Origin: Thermus scotoductus DSM 8553
GTDB taxonomy: Bacteria; Deinococcota; Deinococci; Deinococcales; Thermaceae
NCBI RefSeq assembly: GCF_000381045.1
Contig: NZ_KB905732.1
Coordinates: forward strand, 1 to 33,865
Reading direction: 5' to 3'
Length of the DNA: 33,865 bases
The stretch's first letter is position 1, and each line of letters begins with the position of its first letter. The position numbers were made by a program, and so were the translations under genes. Under the pieces are notes generated by a model. That model made no database searches. It was not told the DNA's origin and worked only from the letters and a program-made list of their open reading frames with translations. This document shows positions 8,845 to 15,026 of this stretch, piece by piece.

Positions 8845-8873
8845 TTGCCCGGTGCCAAGGTCGGGATTAGAAT
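8845..8873 (+). promoter_or_regulatory. Promoter of the methylase-nurA-herA operon
   Basis: TTGCCC (8845-8850) and TAGAAT (8868-8873) are separated by exactly 17 nt. The ATG of the methylase is 8 nt after the -10 box and no Shine-Dalgarno sequence is present, so translation is probably leaderless or nearly so. The same -35 hexamer with the same spacing occurs at fadD (20266). Confidence 0.65.
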
Positions 8874-8881
8874 AGTGGCAA

Positions 8882-11800
8882 ATGAGCCCTTCCAGGGAAG
8901 AAGTTGTTGCCCACTACGCTGACAGGCTTCACCAAGTTCTTCAGAAAACCATAGCGCAGAACCCCAACGAGGCTGAGTTCCGAAGAGCGGTAGAGCCTCT
9001 ATTGGAGGAGTTTTTACGGGAAATGGGCCTCGAGCCCCTAGCCCGAGCAGAGTACACCTTAGCACAGGGACGGGCCGATGCCATCTTTAATCGCTTGGTC
9101 ATCGAGTACGAGCGCCCCGGTGTCCTCAAGCCCAAGCCAGACGCCGCCACACGGCATGCGGTGCAACAGGTTAAGGATTACCTGTCCGGCATCGCCCAGA
9201 GGGAGCGGCATGCCAAGGAACGCCTAGCAGGTGTGGCGTTTGACGGGCGCTATTTGATCTTCGTCCGGCACATGGGGGAAAGGTGGGTGGAGGAACCTCC
9301 CGTGGAGGCCAATCCCCACTCGCTCAAGCGCTTCCTCACCTGGCTTGCGGGCTTGGCTTCGGGGATTGCCCTGACCTCGGAAAACCTCAACCGGGACTTC
9401 AGCATAGAGCAATTGCGCACCCAAACCATCCTCCGTGGGCTTTACCAAGCTTTGGAAAAGGCCCTGGCGGAAGAGGGTCTGGTCCGCCAGCTCTTTGAGC
9501 AATGGCGCATCTTCTTCAGCGAGGCCATAGACTACTCCGAAACCTTTGGCGGGCGCAAGTTGGAACCGCTTAAAAAATGGGTGCGCAAAGCAGGTCTCAA
9601 CATCCAAACCCCAGAAGAAGCCGAGCGTTTCTTCTTCGTCCTCCACACGTACTTCGCCCTATTGGCCAAGCTGCTCGCCTGGCTGGCCCTTTCCCGCCAC
9701 ATGGGGGTTAGGCTGGGAGCCCCGGTGTTCTCTGCCCTTGCTGCTGCAGACGGGGAAACCCTGCAGAAGAGGCTTGGGGAGATGGAGTCGGGAGGCATAT
9801 TCCGGCAGTACGGCATCCTCAACCTTCTGGAGGGGGATTTCTTCGCCTGGTACCTTCACGCCTGGAGCAGCGAGGTGGAGCGTGCCCTCCGTGACCTCAT
9901 CGAACGCCTAGATGAGTACGACCCCACCACCCTCTCCCTCTTCCCCGAGGAAACCCGGGACCTTTTCAAAAAGCTTTACCACTACCTCTTGCCCCGGGAA
10001 ATCCGCCACAACCTGGGGGAGTACTACACCCCAGACTGGCTGGCTTGGCGCCTCCTGGTGCAGCTGGACAATACCTTCTTCGCCGGAACCCCCTCGCCCA
10101 ATGACGAAAAGTTGCGCCAGAAGCTCCTTGGGACCCGGTTTTTAGACCCCGCATGCGGATCCGGTACCTTCTTGGTCCTTGTCATCGGAAGGATGCTGGA
10201 GCTCGGGCGGTTGCTTATGGTTCCGGAGAGGGACCTTTTAGAGGCAATTCTAAAAAATGTGGTGGGTTTCGATCTGAACCCTCTAGCTGTCCTCACAGCC
10301 CGGGTGAACTATCTCCTGGCCATTGCCGATCTCCTTCAGTACCGCCAAGGGGATATCACCATCCCTATTTACCTGGCCGACTCCGTTCGCACGCCTGCCG
10401 AGGGGCAGGACCTTTTCAACCAGGGTATCTACCTCTTCCCCACCGCTGTGGGGGAGTTTCAGGTGCCGGGGGTGCTGGTCGCTACCCCAAAACGCTTCGA
10501 TCGCTTTTGTGAGATTTTGGAAGACAGTATACGCTCCGAGCTGGATGCAAAGGCCTTCCTGGAGAGAACACGAAGGGAACTGGCCCTCGAGGACAACGGA
10601 TGGGATGCCCACGCCCGTGGGTTGACCAAAGACCTTTATGAAAAACTTCTGGATCTCCACAGGAGAGGCCTCAACGGGCTCTGGGCGCGGCTTCTCAAGA
10701 ACAACTTCGCTCCCCTCACCGTGGGACAGTTTGACTACGTCATGGGCAACCCGCCTTGGATTAACTGGGAACACCTGCCTGACGAATATAGGGAAAGCAT
10801 CAAGGACCTTTGGCTCCGTTACCGGATAGCTGGCTCCTTCAAAGGTGGGCGACCCCGCCTAGGAGCAGTCAAAGTGGACATCTCTGCCCTGATGACCTAC
10901 GTAACGGCTGACAAGCTACTCAAAAGCAGCGGCAAGTTGGGTTTTGTTATCACCCAGTCACTCCTGAAAACGGCGGGTGCCGGAGCCGGGTTCCGACGGT
11001 TCAGCATCCCTGGCAAAAACGGCAAGGAAATCCCCCTTCGTGTCCTGCACGTGGATGACATGGTGAACCTCAACCCCTTCGAGGGTGCCTCCAACCGCAC
11101 GGCGGTGATGGTGTTAGAGAAAGGCAAGCCAACGACTTATCCCGTACCCTACACGGTCTGGCGCAAAAAGAAAGGCGCCCGCTTCACCTACGAAAGCACC
11201 CTCGATGAAGTACAAGCCGCCACCCGCCGGCTCCAGTTCCAGGCCGAGCCCGTGGACCCGAACGACCCCACCTCCCCCTGGCTCACCGCCCGCCCGAAGG
11301 CACTCAAGGCTGCGCGCAAAATCATGGGCCGTTCCGATTATGAAGCCCACGCTGGAGTTTGCACCTGGGCAAACGCCGTCTACTGGGTCGAACCGGTGCT
11401 GAAGCGCCCCGATGGGCTTTGGGTGATACGCAACCTGACCGAAGGTGCCAAGGTCAAGGTGGACGAGGTGACCGAGCTGATTGAGCCTGATTTGCTTTAC
11501 CCCCTCCTGCGCGGGCGGGACGTCCAGCGCTGGCGGGCGGAACCCTCGGCGTGGATTATCGTGCCGCAAGACCCAACTAACCCAACCCGCGCCTATCCTG
11601 AAGCGAAGTTACAAGCGGATTACCCCAAGACTTACAGCTACCTCAAGCGGTTTGAAGAGGTACTACGTAATCGGAGTGGCTTTAAGCAAATCCTCTCCAA
11701 GCGTGAGACAGAGTTTTACGGCGTCATGGACATCGGCAACTACACCTTCGCCCCGTGGAAGGTGGTGTGGCGCGGCCAAGTTGCTCCTCACCTTGTTGCT

Positions 11801-12193
11801 GCCGTAACCTCAACCCTTGACGGCAAAGTCATTGTGCCTGATCAAACAGTGTACTTGGCATCCTTCAAAGAACCAGCACCAGCGCATTTCCTTTGCGCGT
11901 GTCTCGACTCGTCCCCCATTCGCTTGACGTACGCAATGCACGGTTACAAACATGTCACCATGGATGTCATTAAGCACATCCGCATCCCGCGCTACGACTC
12001 GTCGGACCCAGTGCATCGGCGGCTTTCGGAGTTATCAGAAGAAGCGCACGAGGCAGCCAAAACGGGAAACGTGCAGAAGGTGGCTGAGCTGGAGGCAGAT
12101 ATTGACAAAGAAGCCGCCAAGCTCTGGGGGCTGACGCCGGAGGAACTAAAGGAGATACAGGAAAGCCTCCGCGAACTCGGAAACACGCAGTGA
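8882..12193 (+). CDS. Large N6-adenine DNA methyltransferase with nuclease-like N-terminus (type IIG / PglX-like)
   Basis: 1103 residues. The first ~150 residues contain EYTLAQGRADAIFNRLVIEY (57-76, with D66, E75, E77), which looks like a PD-(D/E)XK core, although the usual ExK lysine is replaced by glutamate. A helical spacer (about 150-400) leads to the methyltransferase domain: FLDPACGSGTF (420-430, AdoMet binding), GFDLNPLAVLTARVNYLL, and catalytic GNPPW (622-626). The rest includes a TaqI/Eco57I-like target-recognition region, with LLRGRDVQRW near 875-884. It probably methylates adenine in a specific site; whether it also cuts is unclear. It is first in an operon with NurA- and HerA-like genes. 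G+C is visibly lower than in neighbours (28 of 60 in 11641-11700), suggesting acquisition. Confidence 0.85.
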   Translation: MSPSREEVVAHYADRLHQVLQKTIAQNPNEAEFRRAVEPLLEEFLREMGLEPLARAEYTLAQGRADAIFNRLVIEYERPGVLKPKPDAATRHAVQQVKDYLSGIAQRERHAKERLAGVAFDGRYLIFVRHMGERWVEEPPVEANPHSLKRFLTWLAGLASGIALTSENLNRDFSIEQLRTQTILRGLYQALEKALAEEGLVRQLFEQWRIFFSEAIDYSETFGGRKLEPLKKWVRKAGLNIQTPEEAERFFFVLHTYFALLAKLLAWLALSRHMGVRLGAPVFSALAAADGETLQKRLGEMESGGIFRQYGILNLLEGDFFAWYLHAWSSEVERALRDLIERLDEYDPTTLSLFPEETRDLFKKLYHYLLPREIRHNLGEYYTPDWLAWRLLVQLDNTFFAGTPSPNDEKLRQKLLGTRFLDPACGSGTFLVLVIGRMLELGRLLMVPERDLLEAILKNVVGFDLNPLAVLTARVNYLLAIADLLQYRQGDITIPIYLADSVRTPAEGQDLFNQGIYLFPTAVGEFQVPGVLVATPKRFDRFCEILEDSIRSELDAKAFLERTRRELALEDNGWDAHARGLTKDLYEKLLDLHRRGLNGLWARLLKNNFAPLTVGQFDYVMGNPPWINWEHLPDEYRESIKDLWLRYRIAGSFKGGRPRLGAVKVDISALMTYVTADKLLKSSGKLGFVITQSLLKTAGAGAGFRRFSIPGKNGKEIPLRVLHVDDMVNLNPFEGASNRTAVMVLEKGKPTTYPVPYTVWRKKKGARFTYESTLDEVQAATRRLQFQAEPVDPNDPTSPWLTARPKALKAARKIMGRSDYEAHAGVCTWANAVYWVEPVLKRPDGLWVIRNLTEGAKVKVDEVTELIEPDLLYPLLRGRDVQRWRAEPSAWIIVPQDPTNPTRAYPEAKLQADYPKTYSYLKRFEEVLRNRSGFKQILSKRETEFYGVMDIGNYTFAPWKVVWRGQVAPHLVAAVTSTLDGKVIVPDQTVYLASFKEPAPAHFLCACLDSSPIRLTYAMHGYKHVTMDVIKHIRIPRYDSSDPVHRRLSELSEEAHEAAKTGNVQKVAELEADIDKEAAKLWGLTPEELKEIQESLRELGNTQ

Positions 12194-12203
12194 TAGAGGA
12201 GGT

Positions 12204-13334
12204 ATGAAGCCCCTAAAGAGCCTTCGGGAAATCCTGGCAACCCTAGCCCGTGAAGCGGAAGTGCTATCCGCCGTGGGTGGGGCAGTAGAGGATTTGGAGC
12301 GCCCCGACTTTGAGGAGCGAGAGGACCAGGCTCTCAGCGAGGAGGAGCGCGTCTTCGACACCATCTTTGAGAAAAGCCAGGATGGAACCCGCCCTCCCCT
12401 CTACCGCCCCACCCAACCCCTAACCCGACACGACAGGCACCTTTTCCGTTACTTTTTGGATGGCTCCTTCCGTTCCTACTTCCTGGGCACTCTCCTCGAA
12501 CTCGAGCGGGAAACCCCCGTTCACTTTGCCCAAATCGGGGCCTGTGTGCTTCGCCGCGAGGATAATGGCTCGGTGCGGCGGGAAGTTTTAGAGATACGGA
12601 ACCTCCTCCTTGCGGGTAGAAAGCGTCTCTCTCCTGAGCTGTGGGATACATTGAAAAACGCCGCCAAGACGGCAGGTATAAGGCTTGTGGATTTGGAAGA
12701 ACGGGACATCGTGTCTCGTGTGCTTTCCGACTTTGACCTTCGCAATAAGGCAGCGGGTAAGGTGCGATTTGAGATGCACAACTTAGAAGCCGAGCTCATC
12801 AGGGAAGTTCTACCCCGACTAGCGATGGACCGTTGGCTGGTAGTAGACGGTTCCCTTCAGTTTCAACCCACCCTCAACGACTTAAGCCAGAAAGACGGAA
12901 TACAACCCGTGCTGGGTGTGGCCAAAAACTTCCGTAAGGATCCTCAGTTCATCTTTGGACGAGGGCCCCGGAGCGAGCGCCGCTCCATCTACAAACTCCT
13001 TGCTGAACTGGAACCCTATCACCGCACCGCCGCCTATAGCGCCCGGCAGGGCAAACTGGTCTTCTGGTACGTCCGGTTGCGGGAGCAAACCCAAATGGAC
13101 TACCCCCTTATGGGGGTGGTTAAGGCTGAGCTGGTCAACCCCTCCCAGGAGCCGGTACCCTCGGAGTTGATTGACCTGTTATCCCGTGCCCTGGTGGCGG
13201 AAAGGAGCGTTACCCCCCACGGTCAAGACCGTCGGTGGCATGCCCATCTGTATCCTATCTTTCTAGCCGAGCGGGCCATCAAGGAAAGCCTGGTGTCCCG
13301 GGAAGTAGTGCAACAGTTTCTGAAATGGAGGTGA
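12204..13334 (+). CDS. NurA-like nuclease domain protein
   Basis: 376 residues starting 10 nt after the methylase, with GAGGAGGT before the ATG. The pattern fits the NurA fold: YFLDGSFRSYF (D86) as the first acidic motif, WLVVDGSLQF (D215) as the second, GVAKNFRKDP (K241), WYVRLREQ (about 288-295), and a C-terminal WHAHLYPIFLAERA (about 345-358). NurA nucleases are RNase-H-like, Mn-dependent, and work with HerA to resect DNA ends in archaea. Here the HerA-like partner is the next gene (3-nt gap), which strongly supports the assignment even though similarity is by motif only. The linkage to a methylase suggests a role against foreign DNA or at modified sites; that is inference. Confidence 0.65.
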   Translation: MKPLKSLREILATLAREAEVLSAVGGAVEDLERPDFEEREDQALSEEERVFDTIFEKSQDGTRPPLYRPTQPLTRHDRHLFRYFLDGSFRSYFLGTLLELERETPVHFAQIGACVLRREDNGSVRREVLEIRNLLLAGRKRLSPELWDTLKNAAKTAGIRLVDLEERDIVSRVLSDFDLRNKAAGKVRFEMHNLEAELIREVLPRLAMDRWLVVDGSLQFQPTLNDLSQKDGIQPVLGVAKNFRKDPQFIFGRGPRSERRSIYKLLAELEPYHRTAAYSARQGKLVFWYVRLREQTQMDYPLMGVVKAELVNPSQEPVPSELIDLLSRALVAERSVTPHGQDRRWHAHLYPIFLAERAIKESLVSREVVQQFLKWR

Positions 13335-13337
13335 GCT

Positions 13338-15026
13338 ATGCCTGAACCCATCGAACGCCCGGTAATAGGCCTCTCCTCGGCCACCACCAACCAGCCTAAC
13401 TCCTCCGACGAGTTCCACTTCTGGCTGGCACCGGAGGTGATCGTCAACCCCTTCGACATCGTGGAAGCCGAGCAGGTGGCTCCCGGAGGCGAAAAAAGCC
13501 GCACCTTTGGCATCGTAACTACCTTGGAACACACCACCGATGCCCCAAGCCACCTCTCCAACTACATCTCCAACGACTTCGGCCAGGTGTCCACCGAACC
13601 CAATACTCTCCGCCAGGGCACCACTATTGCCCGGGTGGCCGTGCTTTCCAACGACCAGGACATCTACATGCCGGTGATGAACGACCGGCCCGTGCGCTTT
13701 GCTGACGAGAGCGGGATCCATGTTGCCCTGGGCATAGACCAGGTGCCGGAGCGTTACCGGGTTCCCGCCGGACTGATCAGGATGTCCAACGGCACCCAGG
13801 CGGTAGTCTATCTAGATAGCCGCTATATCCTAGGGCCTGAGGGCGCGCACGTGAACATAAGCGGCATCTCGGGCCTGGCCACAAAAACCTCCTACGCCAT
13901 CTTCCTCATCCAGTCCATCCTGCAAAAGGTGGAAAACCGAGACCGCATAGGGGTCATCATCCTTAACGTCAAGCACGGCGACCTTCTTTCCATCGACCAG
14001 CCGCCCCCCAAGGGCCTGGAGCCGGAACAGCATGAGCTTTGGGAAAGACTGGGCCTTATCCCCAAGCCCTTCAGCAACGTACGCTACCTTCTTCCCTACG
14101 GTAAAGACACCCCCACCACAGGCCGGCCCAACAGCTTCCGCCTTCCCGAACGCAACTGGTTCCTGTACGCTTACTCCTTGCAGGATACCTACAACAAGCT
14201 GGATCTCCTCCTCTCCAACATCCCCGACCCCTGGGACACCGTGGGCGCCCTCATCGGGGAGATCACCCAAGGCCTTTCCGACCCCAGAACGGGGCAATGG
14301 GGACCGTCGGGAAAGTGGAAGGGCGTGCAAGACTGGCAAACCCTGCTCAACGGCGAGCCCCTTGTCAAGGATGGGCAAGCCCAGCCGGTAGGGGACGTGC
14401 GTGCCCAATCGGTGGCCCGGTTTAGGCGGCTACTCCGCCGCATCGTCCAGACCCGTCAAACAGGAATCTTCATTCCTCAGCGCCCAAGGCACGTCAAAAA
14501 CCTAAGCGAGGAAATCGCTAAGATCCGGGGTGGGGAAACCATTGTGGTGGACATCGCTCGCCTAGCGGACGACGAGCAGACCCTGGTCTTTGGCGATATC
14601 CTGCGCACCATCTACAACCTCTATGCGGAGGAAGGTAGCGAGCGCGAAGACTTGCCGGAAAAGGTCATCATCTTCGTAGACGAGCTTAACAAGTACGCTC
14701 CTGCACGGGAGAAGGAATCGCCCATCCTGGAACAGGTCCTGGACATCGCCGAACGGGGCCGGTCCTTGGGGGTGGTCCTGTTTGGAGCAGAGCAGTTCAT
14801 GAGTGCGGTGCACGAACGGGTAGCGGGCAACTCCGCCACTTTGGTCCTCGGGCGAAGCGGCTCCGCCGAGCTTTCCTCCTCCGTTTACCGGTTCCTGGAC
14901 CCCGCCATTAAGGCCAACATCTCTCGCCTGCAAAAGGGCGAGCTAATCCTAAGCCACGCCACCTTCCGGCAGCCGGTTAAAATCTCCTTCCCCAAGCCCG
15001 CCTATTTGCAAGAAGGTGCCACCTAG
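13338..15026 (+). CDS. HerA/FtsK-superfamily ATPase with variant Walker A
   Basis: 562 residues. An N-terminal beta-rich region (about 1-150, GLSSATTNQP ... TFGIVTTLEH) resembles the HAS-barrel of HerA. The ATPase domain follows. Walker A reads GISGLATKTS (176-185): compared with HerA GxxGSGKS it has one extra residue, and the glycine before the lysine is T182. Walker B is IIFVDELN (D448, E449). The sensor-like region GVVLFGAEQF and the terminal strands ending PVKISFPKPAY match DUF87/HerA proteins. HerA hexamers translocate DNA and feed NurA. Third gene of the operon, GGAGGT upstream. No gene of the cassette follows: dsbB has its own promoter. Confidence 0.75.
   Translation: MPEPIERPVIGLSSATTNQPNSSDEFHFWLAPEVIVNPFDIVEAEQVAPGGEKSRTFGIVTTLEHTTDAPSHLSNYISNDFGQVSTEPNTLRQGTTIARVAVLSNDQDIYMPVMNDRPVRFADESGIHVALGIDQVPERYRVPAGLIRMSNGTQAVVYLDSRYILGPEGAHVNISGISGLATKTSYAIFLIQSILQKVENRDRIGVIILNVKHGDLLSIDQPPPKGLEPEQHELWERLGLIPKPFSNVRYLLPYGKDTPTTGRPNSFRLPERNWFLYAYSLQDTYNKLDLLLSNIPDPWDTVGALIGEITQGLSDPRTGQWGPSGKWKGVQDWQTLLNGEPLVKDGQAQPVGDVRAQSVARFRRLLRRIVQTRQTGIFIPQRPRHVKNLSEEIAKIRGGETIVVDIARLADDEQTLVFGDILRTIYNLYAEEGSEREDLPEKVIIFVDELNKYAPAREKESPILEQVLDIAERGRSLGVVLFGAEQFMSAVHERVAGNSATLVLGRSGSAELSSSVYRFLDPAIKANISRLQKGELILSHATFRQPVKISFPKPAYLQEGAT

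What the first reader, a model, noticed from the sequence alone, without database searches (positions are those of the whole stretch)
8845..15026. Methylase + NurA-like nuclease + HerA-like ATPase in one operon: candidate restriction/defence system
Seen: three genes on one strand with gaps of 10 and 3 nt, one promoter (TTGCCC-17-TAGAAT) and lower G+C than both flanks. Known: archaeal HerA-NurA resects DNA ends; large Eco57I/PglX-like methylases occur in type IIG and BREX systems; HerA with other effectors (SIR2, DUF4297) is defensive. Inferred: the methylase marks host DNA and the translocating HerA-NurA pair degrades unmarked or broken foreign DNA. No helicase, PglZ, Lon or BrxC gene is present, so this is not a standard BREX or DISARM locus. 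I cannot say from memory whether this exact trio has been described.
Basis: partly seen in the sequence, partly recalled or inferred. Interest (0 to 1): 0.8.

Follow-up and report, generated by a model that had tools for sequence, protein, structure and literature searches.

The report
Restriction enzyme with NurA-HerA DNA pump
A heat-loving Thermus bacterium carries a three-gene unit that joins a self-marking, DNA-cutting restriction enzyme to a nuclease and a ring-shaped DNA pump; a similar unit in a sister species is needed to hand DNA to other cells, and related units found here in many bacterial phyla suggest that it may also, or mainly, destroy foreign DNA.

Summary
In detail: three same-strand genes (gaps 10 and 3 nt, 58% G+C against 65% in the flanks, own promoter) encode an Eco57I-type enzyme, a NurA and a HerA. 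The 'methylase' is a bifunctional type IIG restriction-modification enzyme of the TspDTI subfamily: its first 35 residues equal the chemically sequenced TspDTI N-terminus, and all published catalytic residues fall at the same positions. So restriction is built in, and NurA-HerA is an added second stage.

The trio is not new. The operon TthHB27I-NurA-TdtA(-methylase) on ICETh1 of T. thermophilus HB27 has this order, and its first three genes are needed for DNA donation (transjugation). Here the unit is ICE-less, lacks the fourth gene, and sits after ftsY in 4 of 27 Thermus genomes.

New here, as far as I could check: (i) 56 of 80 sampled loci, from a dozen or more phyla by record title, pair NurA-HerA with this enzyme; (ii) a sister genome (G026) has an identical HerA and near-identical enzyme front half but a different target-recognition domain, matching TspDTI: specificity swapping, as in restriction systems.

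Most likely the enzyme cuts unmodified sites and HerA-NurA takes over the ends. Whether the DNA is destroyed or exported in this host is untested.

The parts
8845..8873 (+). Promoter-like site TTGCCC-17-TAGAAT, ending 8 nt before the start codon
   Evidence: Exact match in the window and in G026; TATAAT at the same place in G030 and G024. Expression not shown.
8882..12193 (+). Type IIG (IIC) restriction-modification enzyme, TspDTI subfamily, 1103 aa; nuclease domain about 1-160, helical 160-360, methylase 360-790, target recognition from about 790 (domain limits as given for TspDTI)
   Evidence: PADLOC REase_II 2232 bits and REase_MTase_IIG 1513 bits; Pfam Eco57I; identity of the first 35 residues and of catalytic residues with TspDTI; model and fold match
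12204..13334 (+). NurA-like nuclease, 376 aa
   Evidence: AlphaFold model pLDDT 88, Foldseek best match NurA 7f6d_G E 6e-12; D86, E195, D215, H348, Y350 invariant in 42 trio members
13338..15026 (+). HerA/TdtA-type hexameric DNA translocase ATPase, 562 aa, Walker A GISGLATKTS, Walker B DE at 448-449
   Evidence: phmmer 7f6d_B E 4.6e-44; Walker residues invariant

Best explanation
This is an ICE-less chromosomal relative of the TthHB27I-NurA-TdtA operon: a TspDTI-type type IIG restriction-modification enzyme coupled to a NurA-HerA nuclease-translocase. Proposed working: (1) the IIG enzyme methylates adenine on one strand of an asymmetric site in host DNA and cuts or nicks unmodified copies, by analogy with TspDTI 11/9 nt downstream; (2) the HerA hexamer with NurA loads on the resulting end; (3) it pumps the duplex and NurA cleaves both strands, so the DNA is destroyed; in a mating-competent Thermus the same pump may instead feed duplex DNA out of the cell (donation). 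Shown here: gene content, order, intact catalytic residues, family identity, fixed site, joint evolution, exchange of the recognition domain. Shown elsewhere for relatives: enzyme activity of TspDTI; need for all three genes in HB27 donation; dsDNA exonuclease activity of an archaeal HerA-NurA. Inferred: the hand-over from IIG to HerA-NurA, and that restriction is at least one of the roles. The recognition sequence is unknown.
For: Identity of gene 1: residues 1-35 equal the chemically sequenced TspDTI N-terminus and catalytic residues sit at the same numbers (PMC3384240). Same gene order and sizes as HB27 (1106/377/568 aa there, 1103/376/562 here), both regions 58% G+C (PMC5365140). One working unit: distances for nuclease domain, methylase domain, NurA and HerA correlate at r 0.76-0.88 over 42 sequences, and the tested catalytic residues of NurA, HerA and methylase are invariant; the order can flip to NurA-HerA-IIG while the genes stay together. 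Restriction-type evolution: against G026, IIG residues 1-500 are 96-100% identical per 50-aa window and HerA 100%, but residues 901-1050 are 70, 38 and 38%; G026 has all three TspDTI specificity loops plus its length (1112 aa), ORF length (3339 bp), mass (126.85 against 126.885 kDa) and G+C (58.04 against 57.99%). Hand-over is plausible: T. kodakarensis HerA-NurA degrades both strands from any end (PMC12977600).
Against: No experiment on this locus. HB27 protein sequences were in no collection searched, so percent identity to TthHB27I, its NurA and TdtA was not measured. The HB27 tdtA mutant showed no significant change in transformation (PMC5365140), though a test with unmodified DNA is not described in the passages read. 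The fourth gene and the ICE are absent. One of the four Thermus copies has a split HerA gene (G024), so the unit is not always kept.
Confidence: 0.7

Rival explanations
1. DNA-donation module only: as proposed for ICETh1, the IIG enzyme nicks or cuts the cell's own DNA to make transfer origins, and the HerA (TdtA-type) pump with NurA exports dsDNA to competent neighbours; restriction of foreign DNA is incidental.
For: In HB27 loss of TdtA abolishes donation, loss of NurA or of the IIG enzyme lowers it by 3-5 orders of magnitude, and transfer is higher in regions with more recognition sites (PMC5365140; PMC7767461). Host has a ComEC-type competence gene.
Against: Module occurs in a dozen or more phyla by record title; near neighbours show defence-type families, and no integrase, relaxase or secretion family is among the 25 most frequent Pfam families there; recognition domain is exchanged while the rest is conserved; no ICE parts here.
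Confidence: 0.25
2. Plain type IIG restriction-modification enzyme whose NurA-HerA neighbours do an unrelated job such as repair of breaks made by the enzyme in the host's own DNA.
For: TspDTI alone is an active bifunctional enzyme (PMC3384240); other Thermus type IIG enzymes such as TaqII are found without NurA-HerA (PMC5587805); HerA-NurA has long been linked to end resection in repair.
Against: Tight co-inheritance; the host already has a separate canonical HerA; the tdtA mutant of HB27 was not clearly sensitive to UV or heat.
Confidence: 0.15
3. Decaying relic of an ICE of the ICETh1 kind, kept by chance without function.
For: Low G+C, patchy presence in the genus, one copy with a frameshifted HerA, no integrase found.
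Against: Intact genes with invariant catalytic residues in three of four Thermus copies; same site in four genomes of differing divergence; -10 box retained.
Confidence: 0.07

Closest known systems
TthHB27I-NurA-TdtA-methylase operon (DNA secretion system) of ICETh1, T. thermophilus HB27 (PMC5365140, PMC7767461)
   Same: Gene order, protein sizes, families, low G+C (58%), one operon from a promoter before the IIG gene; IIG of the same TspDTI subfamily
   Different: Here: no fourth methylase gene next door (and none in 27 Thermus genomes searched with a distant homologue), no integrase found, no tRNA or att repeats, fixed site after ftsY, other recognition domain; donation untested; identities to HB27 proteins not measured
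TspDTI of Thermus sp. DT, ATGAA(11/9) (PMC3384240)
   Same: First 35 residues identical; 17 of 18 residues of sequenced peptide 1; same catalytic residues and numbering; ORF G+C 57.97 against 57.99%
   Different: Recognition domain differs (TspDTI loops absent), 1103 against 1112 aa; the TspDTI paper reports no MTase or DNA-binding gene in the flanks it sequenced
Archaeal and Deinococcus HerA-NurA
   Same: Same folds, NurA active-site residues and HerA Walker motifs
   Different: No mre11-rad50 next door; coupled to a type IIG enzyme; a separate canonical HerA exists in the genome
BREX, DISARM, MADS
   Same: Large N6-adenine methylase; HerA resembles MADS mad8 weakly
   Different: No PglZ, BrxC or Lon found; gene 1 scores 32.5 bits against a cut-off of 400 for BREX-2 PglX

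Membership tests
TspDTI subfamily of type IIG/IIC R-M enzymes | D-EXE nuclease residues D66, E75, E77; DPACGSG; NPPW626 | tested here: met
TspDTI subfamily of type IIG/IIC R-M enzymes | N-terminal and internal peptide sequence of TspDTI | tested here: met
   35/35 N-terminal residues, 17/18 of peptide 1
TspDTI subfamily of type IIG/IIC R-M enzymes | Cuts 11/9 nt from its site; SAM-dependent methylation | not testable with these tools
   needs purified enzyme
TspDTI itself (ATGAA specificity) | Proposed specificity loops WTRLAK968, PQET987, KSMGS1028 | tested here: not met
   absent in the window enzyme, present in that of G026
NurA | RNase H-like NurA fold and conserved acidic/His residues | tested here: met
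   no Pfam NurA match of its own
HerA/FtsK translocase | Walker A/B and homology to a solved HerA | tested here: met
tdtA operon of ICETh1 | Order IIG-NurA-TdtA with matching families and sizes | tested here: met
tdtA operon of ICETh1 | Sequence orthology to TTC1877-1879 | not testable with these tools
   HB27 not found in the collections searched
tdtA operon of ICETh1 | Fourth gene, N4/N6 methylase after tdtA | tested here: not met
   a disulfide oxidoreductase gene follows; no homologue in the genus with a distant query
ICETh1-type element | Integrase, tRNA-Ile att site, 47-bp direct repeats | tested here: not met
   not every window ORF was scanned
tdtA operon of ICETh1 | Required for DNA donation | not testable with these tools
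   needs mating tests
BREX | PglX above cut-off, with PglZ and BrxC | tested here: not met
   PglX models far below cut-off; no such genes among the window ORFs scanned

The most novel reading that the evidence does not exclude
The module is a widespread, so far unnamed class of restriction system in which a single-chain type IIG enzyme marks and cuts, and a partner NurA-HerA machine then degrades the DNA from the cut; it moves between phyla as a unit and changes specificity by swapping recognition domains, and transjugation in T. thermophilus HB27 is a secondary use of it.
Probability: 0.4. Interest if true: 0.75.

Novelty: new member of a known kind. Interest (0 to 1): 0.5.

Why it matters
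It gives the native context of the TspDTI type of restriction enzyme and links two literatures, type IIG enzymology and Thermus transjugation. If the widespread module is defensive, DNA donation in Thermus would be a restriction system turned outwards. The near-identical pair (this genome and G026), which differs mainly in the recognition domain, makes the question directly testable.

Tried and rejected
The IMG/VR scan gave one relative (L158, 48%), a four-gene version on a 42.6-kb contig with a replication-initiation protein upstream. Plasmid search with HerA gave six records; in the four inspected HerA lies next to an exonuclease/SbcD and a large SMC/SbcC-like gene, not the IIG enzyme: another kind of system. 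Considered and rejected: BREX/DISARM (cut-offs not reached, partners not found); the nearby PcrA/UvrD-type helicase as a member (its stretch is present without the trio); an intact ICE (no repeats, tRNA or integrase found); a DNA-repair operon (separate canonical HerA present). The recognition site could not be predicted: apart from L037, the most similar recognition domains are 53-56% identical. My first attempt to hand in this report was malformed and was not accepted.

Full report
OBSERVATION. The three ORFs, their spacing, the promoter-like site and the lower G+C are as reported. The -10 box ends 8 nt before the start codon; G026 has the same sequence, and G030 and G024 have TATAAT at that place. 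The operon therefore probably has its own, almost leaderless transcript (inference).

HOST. The window is part of contig C4 of a 2.07-Mb genome (G000) with 26 other genomes in its genus. One copy of the trio lies in a record titled Thermus altitudinis (L089; the contig has the same length, 88,781, as that of G024), so the genus is Thermus. A GTDB contig titled 'Clostridiales bacterium' (L037) carries a practically identical trio and is probably a mis-binned Thermus contig.

GENE 1. It is not a plain methylase. PADLOC models of type II/IIG enzymes cover it end to end with 2232 and 1513 bits. The TspDTI paper (PMC3384240) reports a chemically sequenced N-terminus of 35 residues; all 35 equal the window protein. 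It also gives putative catalytic residues D66, E75, E77 (nuclease) and D422, D464, D500, NPPW626 (methylase); all occur at the same numbers here. A model with mean pLDDT 86 matches adenine methylases, BrxX, DrdV and MmeI.

GENES 2 AND 3. HerA is clear by sequence. NurA is weak by sequence but clear by fold, its best match being the NurA of the D. radiodurans HerA-NurA complex. In 42 trio members D86, E195, D215, H348 and Y350 of NurA and the Walker residues of HerA never vary.

PRIOR KNOWLEDGE. PMC5365140 describes TTC1877 (type IIG, 1106 aa), TTC1878 (NurA, 377 aa), TTC1879 (TdtA, 568 aa) and TTC1880 (N4/N6 methylase, 410 aa) as one operon on a 58% G+C integrative element of T. thermophilus HB27. 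Loss of any of the first three strongly lowers or abolishes DNA donation. It also mentions tdtA-like clusters with the same enzyme family in T. scotoductus and Chloracidobacterium. PMC7767461 proposes that the enzyme cuts donor DNA and that TdtA with NurA uses the cuts as transfer origins. The trio was therefore already described.

THIS COPY. In G000, G026, G030 and G024 the trio lies directly after ftsY; in G037, G045 and G023 the same place holds about 160 bp. No flanking direct repeats, tRNA or integrase were found, and no homologue of a fourth-gene methylase in the genus, using a distant query. It is a chromosomal, ICE-less, three-gene form present in 4 of 27 genomes.

RECOGNITION-DOMAIN SWAP. 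Against G026 the IIG enzyme is 96-100% identical in each 50-aa window of residues 1-500 and HerA is 100%, but residues 901-1050 are 70, 38 and 38%. DNA identity falls from 98-100% to 54% and returns to 97-100% within NurA and HerA. G026 carries the loops WTRLAK968, PQET987 and KSMGS1028 that the TspDTI authors proposed as specificity determinants, and equals TspDTI in ORF and protein length and, almost exactly, in mass and G+C. So G026 most likely encodes TspDTI (ATGAA) or a near-identical enzyme, and the window a variant of other, unknown specificity.

SPREAD. A scan of GTDB contigs found 460 relatives of HerA, of which the best 80 were kept. NurA lies directly upstream in 76 of the 77 that have both; 56 carry the IIG enzyme, before or after the pair. 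Record titles of loci with the IIG enzyme name Chloroflexota, Armatimonadota, Bipolaricaulota, Desulfovirgula, Moorella, Nitrospirae, Omnitrophota, Planctomycetota, Ignavibacteriae, Thermodesulfobacterium, Caldisericales and others. Most are MAGs, so single assignments may be wrong. In 28 loci a gene of about 410 aa, in one tested case matching PF01555, follows HerA, like the fourth gene of HB27. Distances of nuclease domain, methylase domain, NurA and HerA correlate strongly (r 0.76-0.88), those of the recognition domain much less (r 0.42-0.55). The unit travels together while its specificity part is exchanged.

FUNCTION. Proteins near the module match 151 PADLOC families against 44 for proteins further off (130 each), and GmrSD and AAA_15-type genes recur. 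This is modest evidence because overlapping models inflate the counts. T. kodakarensis HerA-NurA degrades both strands of dsDNA from any end, and its authors suggest an antiviral role (PMC12977600). The most likely working is a cut by the IIG enzyme at unmodified sites, then take-over of the ends by HerA-NurA. Destruction (defence) and export (donation) both remain open for this host; I lean to restriction as at least one role.

NOVELTY. As a member of a described operon type with a subfamily-known enzyme, the window's trio is a new member of a known kind. Not found described in the searched library, which lacks most subscription journals: the breadth of the module, the native link of a TspDTI enzyme to NurA-HerA, and the domain swap.

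Noticed in passing
L155-L157 (empty sites of G037, G045, G023): Where the trio sits in the window, related genomes have about 160 bp with a tiny ORF bearing RGYCCG[ST]GCRHCPW (seen in L156 and L157), antiparallel to ftsY; it seems to have been replaced by the trio.
   Followed up: partly
L089 / L154 (G024, T. altitudinis): The HerA gene is split into ORFs of 344 and 221 aa by a frameshift; decay or sequencing error not decided.
   Followed up: no
L104-L116 (mostly Clostridia): A separate branch has NurA-HerA followed by an HSP90-like ATPase (PF13589) and, in L105, a radical SAM protein, without the IIG enzyme; in L105 PADLOC matches only HerA, weakly.
   Followed up: partly
L056, L067, L070, L090, L094, L102 and others: Relatives of a B12-binding radical SAM protein (about 470-540 aa) lie near the module in up to 17 sampled loci, in several closely after the IIG gene; role unexplained.
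   Followed up: partly
L071, L077, L079, L080, L085: Extra genes lie between IIG and NurA; in L080 these are a protein without Pfam match, an AAA/BrxC-D-like ATPase and a PIN-domain protein, suggesting a larger variant.
   Followed up: no
L033-L036 (cyanobacterial, Streptomyces and Chlorohelix plasmids): A HerA-like gene lies next to an exonuclease/SbcD and a large SMC/SbcC-like gene, with an ImmA/IrrE peptidase upstream in two: a HerA-Mre11-Rad50-like plasmid cluster.
   Followed up: no
L037: A GTDB contig labelled Clostridiales bacterium carries a trio practically identical to the window; probably a mis-binned Thermus contig.
   Followed up: partly
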